The translations under genes and the position numbers were made by a program. From NCBI GenBank assembly GCA_028719885.1, contig JAQYLT010000039.1, forward strand, positions 36,472 through 100,471: 64,000 nt of DNA. Direction: 5' to 3'. The DNA comes from Bacillota bacterium. Lineage in GTDB: Bacteria > Bacillota > Clostridia > Oscillospirales > Oscillospiraceae. Within the stretch, counting starts at the first letter, position 1. Each line of letters starts with the position of its first letter. Positions 4,053 through 63,061 of the stretch are shown piece after piece. The notes under the pieces are model-generated. The model saw nothing but the letters and a program-made list of their open reading frames with translations, searched no databases and was not told the origin of the DNA.

Positions 4053-4312
4053 ATCCTCCCGGCAAATTGGAATTTGTCGGTATGTGATCGTAGGGAACGG
4101 ATTTATCCGTTCCGCCTGGCATCATTTTTGGGTGGTACGTTGAATGGCAGCAGGTTGGATGAAACTGTAGGGAATGGGCTTGCTCATTCCATCGGCGAAG
4201 CCGCCCGCCTGGTGTGTCCAACATTTTTCCATTCAACGCACCGACACAAAACCGTTACCGGGCGGAATGCATGAATGCATTCCCTACGAGCACATACCTA
4301 CAAATTCCGGTC
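4053..4312. repeat. Palindromic-module repeat element, copy 1 (subtype A)
   Basis: Hairpin modules at 4090-4113, 4167-4190 and 4264-4287; outer arms AATTTGTCGGTATGTGATCGTAGGG / CCCTACGAGCACATACCTACAAATT are inverted repeats. Confidence 0.85.
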
Positions 4313-4504
4313 TTCCGGATTACTGCGTTTAACCGACATCCGCGTCACATTTTTCCCCGGGGGGCATTTAACTGGGGGAAATTTTTGAAAAAATGTGTGG
4401 TTTTTGGGGAATTCTGTGGAAAGAGCTGTTGCATTCACCCGGTTCCTATGATATCATACCGTTGCTAATTTATGCCATTCAGGATGGTAACAAGGAGAGA
4501 GTAT

Positions 4505-6400
4505 ATGAAAACAAAACGACTGATCAGCCTGTTGCTGGTGCTTGTCATGGCGGCAGTGCTGTTCGCCGGATGCAGCAAGGAAAAGGAGAGCGGCAAGGCC
4601 TCCGATGGGAAAATCTCCATCAGCATGTATCTGTGGGACCGCTCCATGCTCAAGGAGCTGAGCCCCTGGCTGGAAGAGAAATTCCCCAACATTGAATTCA
4701 CCTTTATCCAGAGCTTCAATACCATGGAATACTACAAGGACCTGATGGCCCGGGGCGAGACCATGCCGGATATCATCACCTGTCGGCGGTTCTCCCTGAA
4801 CGACGCGGCTCCCCTGTCTGAATATCTGATGGATCTGAGCGGATCCGAGGTGGCCGGCACCTTCTACTCCAGCTACCTGGAAGTGAACCGGGAGACCAGC
4901 GGTGCCATCCGCTGGCTGCCCATGTGCGCCGAGGTGGACTGCACCATGGCCAACAAGGACCTGTTTGACCAGTACGGCATCCCCCTGCCCACCAATTACG
5001 AGGAATTCGTTGCCGCCATCGACGCTTTCGAGGCGGTGGGCATCAAGGGGTATCAGACCGACTGGGACTATGACTACACCTGTCTGGAGACCATGCAGGG
5101 CTGTGCCATCCCCGAGCTGATGAGCCTGGAGGGTACCCAGTGGCGCATGGAGTATGAGAGTGAGACCGAGGAGGAGCAGGTGGGTCTGGACGATACCGTC
5201 TGGCCCAAAGTGTTTGAGAAATATGAGCAGTTCCTGAAAGACGTCCGCTTTGAGCAGGGGGATGAGGAGCTGAGGTTCAGCGAGGTCATGGAGCCCTACT
5301 TCGAGGGCAAGACCGCCATGGTCCGCAACACGGCAGCTCTGGCAGACAACATCACGCAGGAGAGGGGCACTAGGAGCGTCATCCTGCCCTATTTCGGCGA
5401 GACCAGCGACGACAACTGGCTGCTGACCTATCCTATGTGCCAGGTTGCCGTCTCCAAGCAGGTGGAGGAGGACGATGCCAAGCGGGAAGCCGTGATGGAG
5501 GTTCTGCTGGCCATCTTCAGCGAGGAGGGCCAGAAGCACGTGGCCGCCGGCACCTCCGTGCTGTCCTACAACAAGGAAGTGAAGATCAACCCCACCCCCG
5601 CCCTGGAGTATGTGCAGGACTGCATCGACAGAAACCACCTGTATATGCGTCTGGCCTCCACGGAGGTGTTCTCCATCTCCCAGGACGTGGGCCACAGGAT
5701 GATGACCGGGGAGTATGACGCCCAGGCCGCCTATGACGCCTTCGACCAGCGCATCACCGACTTTAAGGACCCGGACGCTGTGGAAGTGATGTTCACCCAG
5801 GAGACCGGCTACTCCAACGACTTCACCGAACACGGCAGCGCTGCGGCATCCTCCCTGATGAACACCATCCGTGCCTCCATGGAGGCGGACATGGCCATCG
5901 GCTTCTCTCCCACGGTCAGCACCTCCATCTATGCCGGGGACTACACCCTCCAGCAGGCCAAGTGGGTGCTCACCGCCCGGAATTCCATCTATCAGGGGGA
6001 ATACTCCGGCGAGGAAGTCTGGCGGTTCATGGACTGGCTGGTGAATGTGAAGGAGGACGGCTCCAACCCCATCTGCCACCGCAACCTGATGCCCGTCACC
6101 AGCGGTCTGGAATACACCGTCACCGAGTATGAGCGGGGCAAGTTCCGGCTGGAGGACGTCACCGTGAACGGGGAGCCGCTGGACAAAACCGGTACCTACA
6201 CCCTGCTGCTGGTGGGTGCGGACACCTTCCTGGAGCATGAGACCTTCTGCAACTGCCCCATGCCCGCCGACCTGAAAGAGAAGCGCCAGGCCTATCTGGT
6301 GAGCGACTTCTCCAGCCAGGAGTGTATGCAGGAGGCACTCGAAAAGACCCGGCAGTTCCTGGAACCCACGGAGTATGTGACCATTCGTCAGGGAAAATAA
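4505..6400 (+). CDS. Extracellular solute-binding lipoprotein with 5'-nucleotidase-C-like C-terminal region
   Basis: Lipobox VLFAGCSKEK; SBP family 1 body; C-terminal SGLEYTVTEYERGKFRLEDVTVNGEPLDKTGTYTLLLVGADTF resembles 5_nucleotid_C. Confidence 0.8.
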   Translation: MKTKRLISLLLVLVMAAVLFAGCSKEKESGKASDGKISISMYLWDRSMLKELSPWLEEKFPNIEFTFIQSFNTMEYYKDLMARGETMPDIITCRRFSLNDAAPLSEYLMDLSGSEVAGTFYSSYLEVNRETSGAIRWLPMCAEVDCTMANKDLFDQYGIPLPTNYEEFVAAIDAFEAVGIKGYQTDWDYDYTCLETMQGCAIPELMSLEGTQWRMEYESETEEEQVGLDDTVWPKVFEKYEQFLKDVRFEQGDEELRFSEVMEPYFEGKTAMVRNTAALADNITQERGTRSVILPYFGETSDDNWLLTYPMCQVAVSKQVEEDDAKREAVMEVLLAIFSEEGQKHVAAGTSVLSYNKEVKINPTPALEYVQDCIDRNHLYMRLASTEVFSISQDVGHRMMTGEYDAQAAYDAFDQRITDFKDPDAVEVMFTQETGYSNDFTEHGSAAASSLMNTIRASMEADMAIGFSPTVSTSIYAGDYTLQQAKWVLTARNSIYQGEYSGEEVWRFMDWLVNVKEDGSNPICHRNLMPVTSGLEYTVTEYERGKFRLEDVTVNGEPLDKTGTYTLLLVGADTFLEHETFCNCPMPADLKEKRQAYLVSDFSSQECMQEALEKTRQFLEPTEYVTIRQGK

Positions 6401-54391: not shown

Positions 54392-54506
54392 ATTCCGCAC
54401 CTCCATTTTGAAAATATTATAGCTTACATTCCAAATTCTTTCTATGGGAGAAATTAACAAAAAGAAACTTCTCCGAAAAATTCGGCGAAGTTGTGCCGCC
54501 GCAAAC

Positions 54507-54536
54507 TTTACAAAATAAACCGCCATGCTGTACAAT
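54507..54536 (+). promoter_or_regulatory. Putative sigma-A promoter for integrase
   Basis: TTTACA-N18-TACAAT upstream of the 54,577 ATG. Confidence 0.5.
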
Positions 54537-54576
54537 GACCGTGACGAAACACATTGTGCCAGCGGAAAGGAGTTCA

Positions 54577-55719
54577 ATGGCAAAGAGAAGAACCAACGGC
54601 GAGGGAACCATTCGCCGTAGAAAAAACGGTCGTTGGGAATGCACCATCATGGATGGCTTTCAGTCCAACGGCAAACGAAAATACAAATCCTTTTACGGCG
54701 ATACCCAGGCCGAAGTAAAAAAGAAAATGCAGGCCTACTGCCGGGCAAAGGAGGCGGGACTGCTGTCCGGGATGGATTATTCCTTCCCGGAGTGGGCGGA
54801 CATCTGGTACGACAGCCACCTGGACAACATCAAGCCCACCACCCAGGAAAGCTACAAGTACACCCTGTGCCTGTTGAAAAACGGTTTCTCCCGGCGAAAG
54901 CTGGCGGACATTAAGGCCTACGATGTGGAGCAGCTTCTGAAAAAGCTCCGACGGGAGGGGCGCTCTGATTCCTGCCTTGCCCATTGTCGGGGAATGCTGT
55001 TTCAGATTTTCAACAAGGCCGAGGCCAACGATCTGATCCCCAAGAATCCGGTGCGGTTCGCGGAGAAAATGCGTAAGGGTCCACCCAGTCGGAAGGAAGC
55101 CTTCACAGCTGAAGAAGTCCAGCTTCTCATGGACAACCTTCCCGAAAACCAGATCGGCTGGAGCATCCGGTTGATGCTGGGCACAGGAATGCGTACCCAG
55201 GAGCTGCTGGCTCTGGAACCTCGTCACATTGCGGAGGACGGTTCCACCATCACCATTGAGCAGGCAGTGGTTATGGAGAAGGGCACAGCAAAAATCGGAA
55301 CGCCCAAGTCTTTCGACAGTTACCGCTGCATCCCGGTGCCGGAGAACGTTCGTTACTGTGCCAAACTGCTGCGGGAGACAGACAAGAAGTTCATCTGGGA
55401 GATGCGCAAGCTCAACATGCCCTGCAACCCTTCCACCTTTCGGAAGAAATTTGACGAGGCTGTGAGAAGCGTGGAAGGCGTGCGCCCACTGACGCCCCAC
55501 AGCTGCCGGCACACCTACGTTTCCCAGATGCAGGCATTGGGCGTTGACCTAGCCACCATTCAGAGCATCGTGGGACACGCTGATGTGGATATGACGGTTC
55601 ATTACCTCCACGTTCAGGAGCCTATCCGGCAGGAAGCAATCGGCAAATTTTCCGCCGCGTTTTCAAACCGCCGGAACACGTCTCATCCAGACACATTGGA
55701 CGCATTGGAACCAGCCTAA
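54577..55719 (+). CDS. int: Tyrosine recombinase/integrase (element 1)
   Basis: GTGMRTQELLAL...PHSCRHTYVSQMQALGVDLATIQSIVGHADVDMTVHYLH. Confidence 0.95.
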   Translation: MAKRRTNGEGTIRRRKNGRWECTIMDGFQSNGKRKYKSFYGDTQAEVKKKMQAYCRAKEAGLLSGMDYSFPEWADIWYDSHLDNIKPTTQESYKYTLCLLKNGFSRRKLADIKAYDVEQLLKKLRREGRSDSCLAHCRGMLFQIFNKAEANDLIPKNPVRFAEKMRKGPPSRKEAFTAEEVQLLMDNLPENQIGWSIRLMLGTGMRTQELLALEPRHIAEDGSTITIEQAVVMEKGTAKIGTPKSFDSYRCIPVPENVRYCAKLLRETDKKFIWEMRKLNMPCNPSTFRKKFDEAVRSVEGVRPLTPHSCRHTYVSQMQALGVDLATIQSIVGHADVDMTVHYLHVQEPIRQEAIGKFSAAFSNRRNTSHPDTLDALEPA

Positions 55720-55853: not shown

Positions 55854-55900
55854 GTGGTGGAGATAAGCGGGATCGAACCGCTGACCTCTTGAATGCCATT
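55854..55900. repeat. Direct repeat (att site), left copy = tRNA-Ala 3' fragment
   Basis: GTGGTGGAGATAAGCGGGATCGAACCGCTGACCTCTTGAATGCCATT, identical to 62985-63031. Confidence 0.95.
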
Positions 55901-56050
55901 TATAACACGCCCATTTTTTATCGTTTAATATCGTTTTGAAAAGTCCTTTATTTGCAACGGCTTTTCCGTTGCTTTTTGATTTTTATGGGGTATCGTTTGG
56001 TATCGTGAAATATGTTTGTTGACACATTCTGTTGACAAAAATGTTGACAA

Positions 56051-57220
56051 TCAACCAAGCACCGCAGCCAAGCCGTCAGCAGCTTTTCGGAGGGTCTCCG
56101 GCGTTGTACCTGCGTAGAATTTGAGTGTGGTTTTTGCATCCTCATGCCCAAGAAAATCCTGCGTATCCTTTATGGATGCCTCACCAGATGCCAACATCAA
56201 AGAGCCGCAAGTGTGGCGCAGATCATGGGGGGATACATCGGGGAGATTATGTGCTTTGACAAAACGAGAGAGCCAACGAGTTGGAGCCGTGGGGAACATG
56301 GGTTGATATATATCCGTTTCAAGTGCGAAGATGTACGCATGGGGGAGCAAAACTGCACCGCATTCCTCTGCCTGTACCTGTTTCCATTCCCGGAGCAGTA
56401 ACAGAGCCGGAGTGGACAGCGGCAGAGTACGGATGGAGTTTTTGCTTTTGGGTGTGCCAACGGTTACGCCTTGCCCAGGAACATAGCCAACGGAGCGATT
56501 GATGCTGATGGTGCATTTCTCAAAATCAATATCCGACCATTGCAGACCGACAACCTCACCACGGCGCAAACCCTCCAGAATTAGGATGGTCATCATGCAC
56601 CGCCACCGCAAGGGAGCATTGTCCAGAGCCGCAAGGAAAACCTTTGCTTGTTCGGGGGTCAAGAAATCAACCTGCTTTGCCTCTGCCTTGATAGGCTTTA
56701 CTTTCCGCATGGGGTCTTTTTCAATGAGATCATGCGTTTCTGCATACTTGAATAGGATTCTCAAAACATTCTGATAGTGCTTTAGGGTGGAGGTGGACAA
56801 CCCCTCTGCCCGGAGGTCATTTAAGAACCGTTCAACATCCACACTCTTGATTGCAGCCAGATCACGGTTGCCAAATCGCTCCACGATGCGACCAGACATA
56901 TTCTTGTAAAATTCCACCGTTGCCGCCTTGTGTTCACCGTTCAGCACATGATTTTTCCACCATATTTCCTCCACGAAATAGCGGAAAGTGTTGCGCTTGA
57001 CAGGGACACGCCCAGAGAGAATATCTTTCTCCCAGTTGTCCGCTTGCCGTTGCATTTCTGCCTCCAGTTTTTTGGGGGTGAGTTTTGCCTCCCTGTCGGA
57101 GAGTTTAACCGTCTTTGTGGCGAACTGCTGCTTGCCCAATTCGTCCCGACCTACACACGCACGGAAACGATAGGAAACAATAACGCCGTCTTTGTTTTTG
57201 TAGGGTGTAATACTTGCCAT
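56051..57220 (-). CDS. int: Tyrosine recombinase/integrase (element 2)
   Basis: MASITPYKNKDGVIVSYRFRACVGRDELGKQ...LEGLRRGEVVGLQWSDIDF...PHDLRHTCGSLMLASG...LGHEDAKTTLKFYA. Confidence 0.95.
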   Translation of the reverse strand: MASITPYKNKDGVIVSYRFRACVGRDELGKQQFATKTVKLSDREAKLTPKKLEAEMQRQADNWEKDILSGRVPVKRNTFRYFVEEIWWKNHVLNGEHKAATVEFYKNMSGRIVERFGNRDLAAIKSVDVERFLNDLRAEGLSTSTLKHYQNVLRILFKYAETHDLIEKDPMRKVKPIKAEAKQVDFLTPEQAKVFLAALDNAPLRWRCMMTILILEGLRRGEVVGLQWSDIDFEKCTISINRSVGYVPGQGVTVGTPKSKNSIRTLPLSTPALLLLREWKQVQAEECGAVLLPHAYIFALETDIYQPMFPTAPTRWLSRFVKAHNLPDVSPHDLRHTCGSLMLASGEASIKDTQDFLGHEDAKTTLKFYAGTTPETLRKAADGLAAVLG

Positions 57221-57385
57221 AGTTGCCGCCTCCTGTTTGATTCTGTACATAGTATATCATTGTTGATAGAGGAAATCAAGAGGTCAAACAAGAAATATTA
57301 TAAAAAAGTTATAAACTTTTATATAATTGTCAACAACTTTTTGAATTACAGGACTCAAATGTTCAAAACAAGAAATAACAAGGGG

Positions 57386-57413
57386 TTGACAAAAATAAAA
57401 AAACGAGTATAAT
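57386..57413 (+). promoter_or_regulatory. Consensus sigma-A promoter
   Basis: TTGACA-N16-TATAAT. Confidence 0.8.
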
Positions 57414-57419
57414 ATCAGT

Positions 57420-57700
57420 AGAATTCAAAAACTGAATAGCACAGTTACCGAGTGCGACCACACGCAAGGAATGAAAAGGCTGTTTGTCTGGAGGCAACGG
57501 ATCAAACAGAAATGCCATTTTTGCAGTACATGGCGGCGGTACCGTTATACCGCTAAAAGAAACTGGAGAGCTTGAGTAAAACGAAGCCCGATGAGAGATA
57601 ACCGTGAATGTGTTATCTCAATAGGCGGTTTTGGGACAGGGTAACGCAAGGATCAGATAGAGGCAATCTGTCTATTTTTGTGTGTCCTGTCGTTTTTTTC
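57420..57700 (+). ncRNA. Putative structured noncoding RNA / leader in element 2
   Basis: Four hairpins: CTGTTTG/CAAACAG (57480/57503), GCGGTA/TACCGC (57536/57548), GAGATAAC/GTTATCTC (57595/57612), GACAGG/CCTGTC + T7 (57635/57686); no convincing ORF. Confidence 0.5.
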
Positions 57701-57778
57701 GTTGTAGGGAGCGACACACAAAGAGTGTGCCGTTCCTTTTTTGTTTTCTAAATCTTATGTGAAAGGAAACGAAAAGAA

Positions 57779-57976
57779 ATGTACAACGATGTAAACAGAA
57801 CGCAAACCCCTCCCCGGATGCTGACCATTCGACAAGTGGCACAGACGGGAATCTTGCCAGAGCATAGCCTCCGGCTGATGGCAAGGGCTGGACAGCTCCC
57901 CTCCATAACTGTTGGAGAAACCAAAAAGATTTTAATCAATTATGATCGTTTGGTTGAACAGTTGCAGCAGCTTTGA
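57779..57976 (+). CDS. Small HTH/excisionase-like protein
   Basis: MLTIRQVAQTGILPEHSLRLMARAGQLPSITVGETKKILINYDRLVEQL. Confidence 0.8.
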   Translation: MYNDVNRTQTPPRMLTIRQVAQTGILPEHSLRLMARAGQLPSITVGETKKILINYDRLVEQLQQL

Positions 57977-57988
57977 GGGGGTGATGAT

Positions 57989-58186
57989 GTGGCAATGAAA
58001 ACAAAGTTAATCACCAGACCGAGCATTGCAGCCAAGTTGATGGCGGCAGGATTCAAGGGAAACCAAACTATCAACCCATGGTCACCCGAAAGAACGGCAT
58101 GGGTATTTGATGCAACGCCGGAGTTTATCGCCGTATTGGAGAAACTGGACACCAGAAAAAAGGGCGGTGATTCCTCTGGCAGGTGA
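57989..58186 (+). CDS. Small hypothetical protein
   Basis: MAMKTKLITRPSIAAKLMAAGFKGNQTINPWSPERTAWVFDATPEFIAVLEKL; DUF5659-like look. Confidence 0.55.
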   Translation: MAMKTKLITRPSIAAKLMAAGFKGNQTINPWSPERTAWVFDATPEFIAVLEKLDTRKKGGDSSGR

Positions 58187-59630
58187 GATCGATTATCAGT
58201 TTGATTTTCTTATTCGGCACATGGGAACGGATGGATATGCAGAGGCTATCAAGAGGGACAATTTCAAAAAGGAAGAATTGTATAACCATGTAAAGTATTG
58301 CGTGGACAACCATCTTGATTGGCGAACAGGTGAACCCATAAGCGAAAAAGCAAGTGACAATCGGGATGCCGTGTATATGTTGCTTGATAAGGAATATAAG
58401 AAAATCAACGGTGAGAAAACATTGGTTGTATGCCGTACTGCATCCAACTTTTTGACAATCCTCCGAAATGACGAACATTTCCGAAATGTGAAATATAACA
58501 CTTTGCGAGGGTTGCCGGAGAAGATCATAAACGGCAAGGCGGTACAATGGACAGATGCAGACGATGCAATTTCACGAACCTATATTGAATCGTGCTATTA
58601 CATATCGAACCGCCAAAAATACGAGGATGCTTTTTGTGAGTTTCAGCACGACCGGGAATATGACCCCATACAGGATCGCATAAATGCGGTTGAGTGGGAT
58701 GGTGTGGCAAGAGTGGAAACCATGCTGCATCGGTGGTTAGGTGCAGAGGATTCCCCATACATTCGGGAATGCTCCCGGCTACTGTTTGCAGGTGGTATCA
58801 ATCGAGCATTCCGACCGGGGGCAAAGTTTGACGATGTTGTTGTATTTGTAGGCAAACAGGGCGGAGGTAAATCCACCTTTGTCCGTTGGCTTGCCCTTGC
58901 TCCAGAGTTATACAGCAGTATCAAAACCATTTCCGGGCAAAAGGGTCTGGAGGGCATACAGGGCAAATGGATAGTGGAAATCGAGGAACTACTTGCGACG
59001 ATGGCAAACGATTATTCCGGCACCAAGAGCGAGGAAAACACCAAGGCATTTATCTCTACTGCATCCGATTTTTACCGAAAGCCTTATGATCGCAGACCTA
59101 CCGACACGCCCAGGCATTGCGTATTCATTGGAACAACCAACCGAGAAACATTCTTGACGGATAAAACTGGCAACCGCCGTTGGTATCCTGTTCGGGTTGA
59201 TGTTGATGGGCGGTGGTTGTATGAGCATGAGGAAGAATGCAAGGCGGATATTCTGCAAGCGTGGGCGGAAATGAAACACGCCTTTGACAATGGTTTATCC
59301 CTTGCCAAACCTGTGGCAGATGTCGCATTGCTGTCCACCATTAAGGAAGAACAGGCGGCAGCAGAGCAGGACGATTGGAGAGAGGGATTGATCGAGCAAT
59401 ATCTGGATGGCAAGGAAAAAGTTTGTTTAATCGAGGTATGGCAAAGGGCATTGTATCCAGATCGCTCCCCATACTACCCCGAAATGTCAAGGCGTGATGC
59501 CTATGCGTTATCGGCTATTATCTGCAACAAAATGGGATGGGTGCGAGGCAATGTGAGCGACTTTGGCGATTATGGCAGACAGAAAAGTTTTTACAAAGAA
59601 CCTCCGAAGATAGACTTTGAACCCCTTTGA
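58107..59630 (+). CDS. VapE-like primase/helicase (virulence-associated E family); true start possibly near 58,168
   Basis: VVVFVGKQGGGKSTFVRWLA; GKWIVEIEELLATM; AFISTASDFYRKPYDRRPTDTPRHCVFIGTTNRETFLTDKTGNRRWYPV. Confidence 0.9.
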   Translation: MMQRRSLSPYWRNWTPEKRAVIPLAGEIDYQFDFLIRHMGTDGYAEAIKRDNFKKEELYNHVKYCVDNHLDWRTGEPISEKASDNRDAVYMLLDKEYKKINGEKTLVVCRTASNFLTILRNDEHFRNVKYNTLRGLPEKIINGKAVQWTDADDAISRTYIESCYYISNRQKYEDAFCEFQHDREYDPIQDRINAVEWDGVARVETMLHRWLGAEDSPYIRECSRLLFAGGINRAFRPGAKFDDVVVFVGKQGGGKSTFVRWLALAPELYSSIKTISGQKGLEGIQGKWIVEIEELLATMANDYSGTKSEENTKAFISTASDFYRKPYDRRPTDTPRHCVFIGTTNRETFLTDKTGNRRWYPVRVDVDGRWLYEHEEECKADILQAWAEMKHAFDNGLSLAKPVADVALLSTIKEEQAAAEQDDWREGLIEQYLDGKEKVCLIEVWQRALYPDRSPYYPEMSRRDAYALSAIICNKMGWVRGNVSDFGDYGRQKSFYKEPPKIDFEPL

Positions 59631-60287: not shown

Positions 60288-60662
60288 GTGCCGACGTTGT
60301 CAACGATGAACAACGAGCAGATCATGGCTGCGCTGATTGCGTGCGGAAGTGTTCGGGCTGCTGCCAAGGCTGTAGGATGCAGCGAAACCACGATTCGGTC
60401 AAGGCTGAATGACCCCGATTTTCGCAAGGAATACGAAACCGCAAAAGGTGCGGTGCTGACAGAGGCTTGTGATGCTTTGGGTGCAAGGCTGACCCATGCT
60501 GTCGATGTTCTTGTGGAAGTGTTAGACAATACGGAAAACGCCGCCACGGTGCGAGTATCAGCCGCTGACAGTCTGCTCCGGCATGGCTTGCGGTACATCG
60601 AAATGGGCAACATTCTGCTCCGGCTTGATGCTTTGGAACAGAGAACCAACGGCGAGGGGTGA
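60288..60662 (+). CDS. HTH protein resembling phage terminase small subunit / phBC6A51-type
   Basis: GTG start; IAALIACGSVRAAAKAVGCSETTIRSRLNDPDFRKEYETAKGAVL...AATVRVSAADSLLRHGLRYIE. Confidence 0.65.
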   Translation: MPTLSTMNNEQIMAALIACGSVRAAAKAVGCSETTIRSRLNDPDFRKEYETAKGAVLTEACDALGARLTHAVDVLVEVLDNTENAATVRVSAADSLLRHGLRYIEMGNILLRLDALEQRTNGEG

Positions 60663-61639: not shown

Positions 61640-62275
61640 ATGAGTAAGTTTAGCAGTTATGCAAAGAGAATGAATGAGATTGCAAATGCCACCTTTGCCG
61701 AATACCGGGAAAAGAGTGATGCTGTCAAGTCTGCAGAAAGCAGGTACAGAGCCTATCCGTGGAGGGATGGCGCAGACCCTACCTATTTAGCAAAGAGTGC
61801 CAGGGCAAAGGCTGACCTTGCAGAGGCAAACGCACAGTTTGAGCATTGCCGCCGTCATCTGTTCGAGGAACAGCGGAGAGATGTTGCCGTTATTCGTGCG
61901 GAGTTGGTGGAGGCTTTGAGCAAAGAGTATGCCGCAGACCCCTCCAAAGTGGATATGCAGACTTTGGAACTGCTGCGTAGCGGTATCATGTCCGCCGATG
62001 AATATAGCCGCCTGATTGATGCAGCAGCCTCCAACGGCAATCATACAATGGTGAGGTTGATTGCAAAGAATGCCGCTGACATGGCAGAAAAGGCAACTGA
62101 TGCCGATGTTGCCCGGAGTTATAGACTTGTTTCCCATAGGGGCAAGGGCAACGATGGCAACGAGTATCTGCGAGCCTTTGACTTTTTGGCTGACACCTTT
62201 AACCGCTGCGAGCGAAATTTTGCATTGTCCACCAAATGGGACGAACTGACCTCCCCTGTGGTTGAAAGTTTCTAA
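61640..62275 (+). CDS. Hypothetical helical phage-like protein
   Basis: 211-aa ORF with RBS-like GAGG; MSKFSSYAKRMNEIANATFAEYREKSDAVKSAE. Confidence 0.6.
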   Translation: MSKFSSYAKRMNEIANATFAEYREKSDAVKSAESRYRAYPWRDGADPTYLAKSARAKADLAEANAQFEHCRRHLFEEQRRDVAVIRAELVEALSKEYAADPSKVDMQTLELLRSGIMSADEYSRLIDAAASNGNHTMVRLIAKNAADMAEKATDADVARSYRLVSHRGKGNDGNEYLRAFDFLADTFNRCERNFALSTKWDELTSPVVESF

Positions 62276-62740: not shown

Positions 62741-62985
62741 AAAAAGATATTTGCATAGTGCATTCGGCACATGAGTTTCTCCTTTCGGGAAAGCCGTCCA
62801 GTTATCCGCTGGGCGGTTTTTCTGTGCCTTTTGGGTGCTAAAAATCCGATTTGTTGACACTTTTAGTTGACAAAACCCAATTTTGCCGATTTTGGGCGAA
62901 AATCAATTTTGTGTAAAATGTTTGGAATTTTCCTGAAAACAAAGAAAAACACCGCAAACCAAACGGTTTACGGTGTGATTTTCTG

Positions 62986-63061
<76 letters not shown>

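What the first reader, a model, noticed from the sequence alone, without database searches (positions are those of the whole stretch)
57386..57700. Candidate structured ncRNA driven by a consensus promoter between the divergent int and xis-like genes of element 2
TTGACA-N16-TATAAT is followed by about 280 nt with no convincing ORF but four clean hairpins: 7-bp CTGTTTG/CAAACAG, 6-bp GCGGTA/TACCGC, 8-bp GAGATAAC/GTTATCTC, and a terminal GACAGG/CCTGTC followed by TTTTTTT. This could be a satellite-encoded regulatory RNA or an attenuated leader of the xis-vapE operon.
Basis: partly seen in the sequence, partly recalled or inferred. Interest (0 to 1): 0.75.

Follow-up and report, generated by a model that had tools for sequence, protein, structure and literature searches.

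The report
Two-terminator RNA switch before satellite genes
A small integrated virus-parasite (satellite) in this bacterium carries, where relatives usually have a repressor protein gene, a folded leader RNA with two successive stop signals that can refold so that neither works, which suggests that RNA folding rather than a repressor holds its excision and replication genes in check.

Summary
In detail: a 12/12 sigma-70 consensus promoter, then a strongly folded noncoding stretch (z = -4.1; -5.8 for the whole leader) ending in a terminator. No Rfam family matches. One genuine homolog was found (L004, a rumen Selenomonas MAG contig, again ahead of xis-vapE). The two central domains are barely alignable, but short blocks are nearly unchanged, more so than the xis gene. 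Those blocks pair in two mutually exclusive ways in both elements. In one state terminators T1 and T2 form. In the other, all four terminator arms are taken up: 5' GAAUAGCRCA with the T2 3' arm, GUUACC with GGUAAC in the T1 5' arm, and the T1 3' arm with the T2 5' arm. The host element is a 7.1-kb satellite (47-bp att repeats, int, xis, VapE, TerS-like) with no recognisable repressor gene; at other loci of this Xis family 18 of 23 upstream genes examined are HTH_3 repressors. Best reading: a transcription-attenuation leader of the xis-vapE operon that also releases ~270-320-nt RNAs. Caveats: two sequences only, no classical covariation, no expression data, trigger unknown.

The parts
55854..55900 (+). 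attL: one copy of the 47-bp direct repeat bounding the satellite (3' part of a tRNA-Ala gene)
   Evidence: perfect 47-nt repeat with 62985-63031
56051..57250 (-). int, tyrosine integrase (399 aa), divergent from the RNA
   Evidence: PF00589 E 5.5e-25
57386..57413 (+). sigma-70 promoter TTGACA-N16-TATAAT of the leader RNA
   Evidence: 12/12 match; promoter to about +5 is 35 of 40 identical in L004
57427..57443 (+). helix I 5' segment (contains GAAUAGCACA); alternative partner of the T2 3' arm and U-tract 57726-57742
   Evidence: 14 bp in W, 15 bp in L004; duplex with the T2 3' arm reached by under 1% of shuffles in each
57444..57449 (+). helix II 5' segment GUUACC; partner GGUAAC 57640-57645 inside the T1 5' arm
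   Evidence: pairing probability 0.98-1.0 in the nascent chain before the T1 3' arm is made, in W and L004
57450..57639 (+). central multibranch domain (hairpins 57480-57509, 57535-57554, 57595-57619), closed by helix II; poorly conserved
   Evidence: folds; 64% identity in aligned columns, 37% with gaps, in L004
57635..57699 (+). terminator T1 (57635-57691 hairpin, T7 57693-57699); inner hairpin 57655-57673 is common to both states
57675..57691 (+). T1 3' arm; alternative (helix III) partner of the T2 5' arm 57707-57724; UUUGUGUGUC 57677-57686 with GACACACAAA 57713-57722
   Evidence: 10-bp perfect helix reached by 0.7% of shuffles
57707..57742 (+). terminator T2 (hairpin 57707-57736, T6 57737-57742)
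   Evidence: all aligned letters identical in L004
57779..57976 (+). xis-like small protein (65 aa), first gene after the leader
   Evidence: 80% identical to the L004 protein; related to HTH_17/excisionase-like proteins only weakly
57989..58186 (+). small ORF (65 aa) between xis and vapE
   Evidence: counterpart L004 2206-2409; no family hit
58107..59630 (+). VapE-type replicative helicase/primase (start codon uncertain)
   Evidence: PF05272 E 1.3e-58; phrog_256 DNA helicase
60288..60662 (+). TerS-like small terminase subunit
   Evidence: phrog_4044 E 1.5e-5; similar proteins in Streptococcus satellite phages Javan292/293/328
62985..63031 (+). attR: second copy of the 47-bp repeat, inside tRNA-Ala(GGC) 62986-63061

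Best explanation
The region is the roughly 340-nt 5' leader of the xis-(orf)-vapE operon of a 7.1-kb phage satellite, and it works as a transcription attenuator with two tandem intrinsic terminators and a built-in antiterminated fold. As the leader is made, 5' GUUACC pairs with GGUAAC and closes the central domain; this is the favoured nascent fold predicted in both elements. If that helix persists when the T1 3' arm emerges, the arm can pair with the T2 5' arm, and the 5' GAAUAGCRCA segment can take the T2 3' arm. Then neither terminator forms and RNA polymerase reads into xis and vapE. If helix II gives way, T1 forms (T2 is the backup), transcription stops and a ~270- or ~320-nt RNA is released; the isolated RNA thermodynamically prefers this OFF state. 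The element has no recognisable Stl/CI-type repressor, so I infer that this leader, or a factor acting on it (perhaps a helper-phage protein or RNA), is what keeps excision and replication off until induction. Shown from sequence: promoter, two terminators, alternative pairings and their preservation in a homolog, missing repressor. Inferred: termination in vivo, direction of the switch, and the trigger.
For: Consensus promoter and two terminators ahead of xis. Fold z -4.1 and -5.8; L004 z -3.3. One homolog with the same order promoter-RNA-T1-T2-xis-orf-vapE. Conservation sits in the pairing blocks: aligned letters of the T1 3' arm and T2 are 100% identical and GGTAAC with flank 9/10, against 76% for the xis CDS, 64% for the central domain and 69% for vapE 5'. 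The same three-helix alternative state is found independently in W and L004; only 1 of 400 shuffles of the 5' segment interacts as well, in each. The one change in the paired GAAUAGCRCA core (A to G) keeps pairing (A-U to G-U). Helix II probability is 0.98-1.0 before the T1 3' arm and about 0 once T1 is complete. No repressor in the element, whereas 18 of 23 upstream genes examined at other loci of this Xis family are HTH_3 proteins.
Against: Only two sequences, so no real covariation; RNAalifold counts no both-sides-changed pair. In the window the alternative state lies about 12 kcal/mol above the terminated state at equilibrium (1.4 in L004), so it must be kinetically trapped or stabilised by a factor. 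When the whole upstream leader is shuffled, about 10% of shuffles interact as strongly, so only the 5' segment test is convincing. The antiterminated fold is also the sort of structure a folding program can find in a 320-nt RNA. The central domain is poorly conserved, which speaks against a conserved ligand. No expression data.
Confidence: 0.58

Rival explanations
1. A stand-alone trans-acting small RNA: the T1-terminated ~270-nt RNA is the functional product (for example acting on helper-phage or satellite transcripts, like the CI RNA of phage P4), T2 is only insulation, and xis has its own control.
For: Strong promoter, strong fold and a strong first terminator. In the terminated state the 5' segments that are free for pairing are the conserved ones.
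Against: No other promoter-like site was found between T2 and xis in the permissive scan, so xis seems to depend on readthrough. Every conserved block has a cis partner, and no trans target was identified. The poorly conserved central domain does not look like a conserved sRNA body.
Confidence: 0.2
2. Antisense-controlled attenuator, as in plasmid pIP501: a countertranscript from the opposite strand of the leader binds the nascent RNA and forces termination.
For: Geometry is alike: pIP501 has a ~300-nt leader ahead of a replication gene controlled by attenuation (PMC4981023); here the promoter-to-SD distance is about 340 nt.
Against: A permissive scan found no good antisense promoter inside the leader in the window; the few weak minus-strand matches lie at its 5' end or differ between the two elements.
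Confidence: 0.08
3. Conservation reflects DNA sites, not RNA: GTGTGTC/GACACAC/CACAC-N5-GTGTG are inverted repeats bound by Xis, Int or a regulator, and the RNA-like pairing is a by-product.
For: The conserved blocks contain nested CACAC/GTGTG inverted repeats; GTTGACAM repeats occur near both att ends and at the -35 of this promoter.
Against: GTGTGTC and GACACAC each occur once on the + strand in the element, in these arms only. T-runs follow both hairpins in both elements. A DNA site does not explain GAAUAGCRCA/UGUGC.GUUC or GUUACC/GGUAAC, which lie 200-300 bp apart.
Confidence: 0.1
4. Ordinary strong promoter followed by fast-evolving sequence and two insulating terminators, with the T1-T2 block recently shared by recombination; the alternative pairing is fortuitous.
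For: The elements do recombine (vapE 3' end 96% identical while the 5' part is about 69%); two homologs cannot exclude it.
Against: Separate conserved blocks (promoter, 5' segment, GGTAAC, T1 3' arm with T2) are interrupted by diverged stretches, which a single short exchange would not give. Fold z scores and 1/400 shuffles.
Confidence: 0.12

Closest known systems
Phage P4 leader / CI RNA immunity
   Same: A satellite whose replication operon is kept off by premature transcription termination in an untranslated leader with competing complementary segments (description in PMC4825925), rather than by a protein repressor.
   Different: P4 uses a processed CI RNA pairing with seqA and seqC. Here the complementarities link the leader's 5' end and two intrinsic terminators in cis. 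No sequence or family relation was found; host group, integrase and excisionase differ.
int-alpA RNA motif (Rfam)
   Same: As recalled, a structured RNA between integrase and a small excisionase/regulator gene in integrative elements.
   Different: No cmscan match of the window up to E 10 or of L004 up to E 1; the downstream protein is not recognised by AlpA models.
Antisense-controlled attenuators of plasmids (pIP501/pAMbeta1; pT181 from memory)
   Same: About 300-nt leader with attenuation ahead of a replication gene (pIP501: PMC4981023).
   Different: Two tandem terminators, excisionase as first gene, and no antisense promoter found.
Gram-positive PICI/SaPI control region (Stl/Rpr repressor)
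   Same: Same genome plan: int on the left, regulatory region, divergent xis, replication gene, TerS (PMC6092414).
   Different: The repressor gene that defines the Gram-positive control region is missing and the leader RNA occupies its place.
Riboswitch-type transcription attenuators
   Same: A multibranch domain closed by a helix that competes with a terminator.
   Different: The central domain is not conserved between the two examples; no ligand-binding family matches in Rfam.

Membership tests
int-alpA RNA motif (Rfam) | match to the family covariance model | tested here: not met
   cmscan of 57250-57800 at E<=10 and of L004 at E<=1 gives no such hit
int-alpA RNA motif (Rfam) | adjacent AlpA-family gene | tested here: not met
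   65-aa protein has no AlpA hit; relatives only weakly HTH_17/excise
Gram-positive PICI | int, divergent xis, replication gene and TerS in conserved order with att sites | tested here: met
   (xis assignment by position and family resemblance only)
Gram-positive PICI | divergent master repressor Rpr/Stl between int and xis | tested here: not met
   no such ORF between 57250 and 57779; no repressor-type Pfam hit in the other element ORFs
Gram-positive PICI | induction and packaging by a helper phage | not testable with these tools
   needs an experiment
Transcription-attenuation leader (general kind) | promoter, untranslated leader, intrinsic terminator before the first gene | tested here: met
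Transcription-attenuation leader (general kind) | mutually exclusive antiterminator pairing conserved in relatives | tested here: inconclusive
   present and preserved in 2 of 2 sequences; too few for covariation
Transcription-attenuation leader (general kind) | regulated readthrough in vivo | not testable with these tools
   no expression data
P4-type CI RNA immunity | trans-acting RNA that promotes termination in the leader | not testable with these tools
   no transcript data; the free segments would if anything block T1/T2 in trans
Antisense-controlled attenuator (pIP501 type) | promoter for a countertranscript inside the leader | tested here: not met
   permissive sigma-70 scan of the minus strand
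Leader-peptide attenuator | translated short ORF with SD in the leader | tested here: not met
   no SD-preceded ORF in the window leader; only TTG candidates inside T1 in L004

The most novel reading that the evidence does not exclude
A lineage of Firmicutes phage satellites has dispensed with the Stl/Rpr master repressor and controls excision and replication by an RNA switch in which one leader disables two consecutive terminators at once, flipped by a helper-phage factor.
Probability: 0.27. Interest if true: 0.78.

Novelty: new variant of a known kind. Interest (0 to 1): 0.55.

Why it matters
How helper phages wake satellites that lack a master repressor is openly unresolved for some groups (PMC10803314 asks how the helper activates the early regulon; PMC6092414 calls a global repressor in Gram-negative PICIs unclear). 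A repressor-less Firmicutes satellite with a bistable, double-terminator leader gives a concrete and testable RNA-level answer. The exact bases to mutate are given by the three conserved pairings.

Tried and rejected
Rfam membership: none; the weak sRNA hits are far below gathering scores. Extra homologs by DNA: phages and plasmids with the window and with L004: none (Borreliella hits are AT-rich promoter-region matches). By Xis in 397 order, 136 genus and 401 family genomes and 22 genomes of the L004 genus, by VapE in 399 phylum genomes and by RNA model R1 in 392 class genomes: only the window itself and L004 carry this RNA. R1's weak hits L200-L202 were read and are ordinary terminators of unrelated genes. 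L002/L003 matched only the promoter and are unrelated genes. IMG/VR patterns gave chance matches: L203 lies in coding DNA, L042 lies in a phage contig with no leader-like context, L204 is an unrelated intergenic inverted repeat. A first hard-constraint folding run was faulty (arms left unpaired altogether) and was replaced. Considered and dropped: leader-peptide attenuation, type III toxin-antitoxin RNA (no repeats, no toxin gene downstream), retron (no reverse transcriptase), antisense attenuation.

Full report
1. The observation. The stretch folds far better than dinucleotide shuffles: z -4.1 for 57420-57700 and -5.8 for 57420-57742. No SD-preceded ORF was found in the leader. No Rfam family matches the window region at E up to 10 in a meaningful way, or the homolog L004 at E up to 1. 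One thing was missed: a second terminator, T2, at 57707-57742, between T1 (57635-57699) and xis.

2. The surroundings. A perfect 47-bp direct repeat, 55854-55900 and 62985-63031, the second copy lying in tRNA-Ala(GGC), bounds a 7.1-kb element. It carries int (PF00589), a 65-aa xis-like protein, a VapE helicase/primase (PF05272) and a TerS-like protein whose relatives include Streptococcus satellite phages. It is a satellite of the PICI kind. Published Gram-positive PICIs keep a divergent repressor (Stl/Rpr) between int and xis (PMC6092414). Of 23 genes examined upstream of xis at other loci of this Xis family, 18 are HTH_3 proteins. Here that place is taken by the RNA, and no other element ORF has a repressor-type domain.

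3. A homolog. Searching with the Xis protein gave one genuine relative, L004 (contig CACZIV010000107.1, labelled Selenomonas ruminantium MAG; a 5.3-kb contig, so binning is not certain). It has the order RNA-T1-T2-xis-orf-vapE. Its int (41% identical) lies upstream on the same strand, so the RNA is conserved although the neighbouring gene is turned round. Conservation is patchy in a telling way. All aligned letters of the T1 3' arm and T2 are identical; GGTAAC with its flank is 9/10; the promoter to about +5 is 35/40. The central domain has 64% identity in aligned columns (37% with gaps, 190 against 117 nt), the T1 inner hairpin 62%, and the xis gene 76%.

4. What the conserved blocks do. Folding with terminator arm-to-arm pairing penalised gives the same second structure in both elements. 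Helix I pairs the 5' segment holding GAAUAGCRCA with the T2 3' arm and its U-tract (14 and 15 bp). Helix II pairs GUUACC with GGUAAC inside the T1 5' arm and closes the central domain. Helix III pairs the T1 3' arm with the T2 5' arm (16 and 15 bp). The inner T1 hairpin is kept in both states. So all four arms of both terminators are accounted for. Only 1 of 400 shuffles of the 5' segment gave as strong an interaction, in each element. Single-pairing tests give 0.8-1% for helix I, 2-5% for helix II and 0.7% for the helix III core. In L004 the only change in the GAAUAGCRCA core keeps pairing as G-U. Before the T1 3' arm is transcribed helix II has probability 0.98-1.0 in both; once T1 is complete it is about 0.

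5. How it probably works. Transcription starts near 57420 (inferred from the -10 box). The nascent leader closes helix II. Whether that helix survives while the T1 3' arm emerges decides the outcome. If it survives, helices III and I can form, neither terminator works and xis-vapE is transcribed. If not, T1 and T2 form and ~270- or ~320-nt RNAs are released. The terminated state is favoured at equilibrium (by 12 kcal/mol in the window, 1.4 in L004), as expected for a quiescent satellite, so an inducer would have to stabilise the nascent fold. The inducer, and the direction of the switch in vivo, are inference. A helper-phage RNA-binding or antitermination factor is my first guess.

6. Limits. 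With two sequences there is no proper covariation. Folding energies are approximate, and when the whole upstream leader is shuffled about 10% of shuffles interact as strongly. The T1-T2 block could have been exchanged by recombination, since vapE plainly was (96% against about 69%), although the conserved blocks are interrupted by diverged stretches. Searches of more than a thousand genomes, of IMG/VR and of phage and plasmid records gave no third member.

7. Comparison. It works most like the P4 satellite, where premature termination in an untranslated leader keeps replication genes off (PMC4825925), and like the ~300-nt attenuated leader of plasmid pIP501 (PMC4981023). It belongs to neither by any test made here. 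It is not the int-alpA motif. I class it as a new variant of a known kind: a transcription-attenuation leader with two coupled terminators, in the seat of a satellite repressor.

Noticed in passing
L016 1360-1500 and L017 1340-1500: Two other Xis-family loci without an adjacent repressor also have a terminator between promoter and xis. Its 5' arm contains a Shine-Dalgarno and a tiny leader ORF (MSG* and MPAGPFCA*), which looks like translation-coupled attenuation.
   Followed up: partly
window 56018-56050, 57327-57334, 57385-57392, 62853-62873: GTTGACAM repeats (8 in the window, 2.65 expected, none of 100 shuffles as many): 3 and 2 copies just inside the two att ends, and two between int and the RNA. 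They may be integrase arm-binding sites, one of them overlapping the -35 of the RNA promoter.
   Followed up: partly
window 59230-59630 vs L004 3453-3853: The 3' part of vapE is 96% identical to the rumen element while the 5' part is about 69% identical: a recombination mosaic between satellites.
   Followed up: no
window 54493-55719 and 55854: Another integrase gene (element 1) ends just left of attL of element 2: two elements lie side by side, but only two copies of the att core were found in the window.
   Followed up: partly
L205 (MT837714.1) 4111-5303: A human-gut phage-collection record has a TerS-like protein followed by a 221-aa protein that resembles the window's 61640-62275 product (by eye): a related satellite lineage with a different left side.
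   Followed up: no
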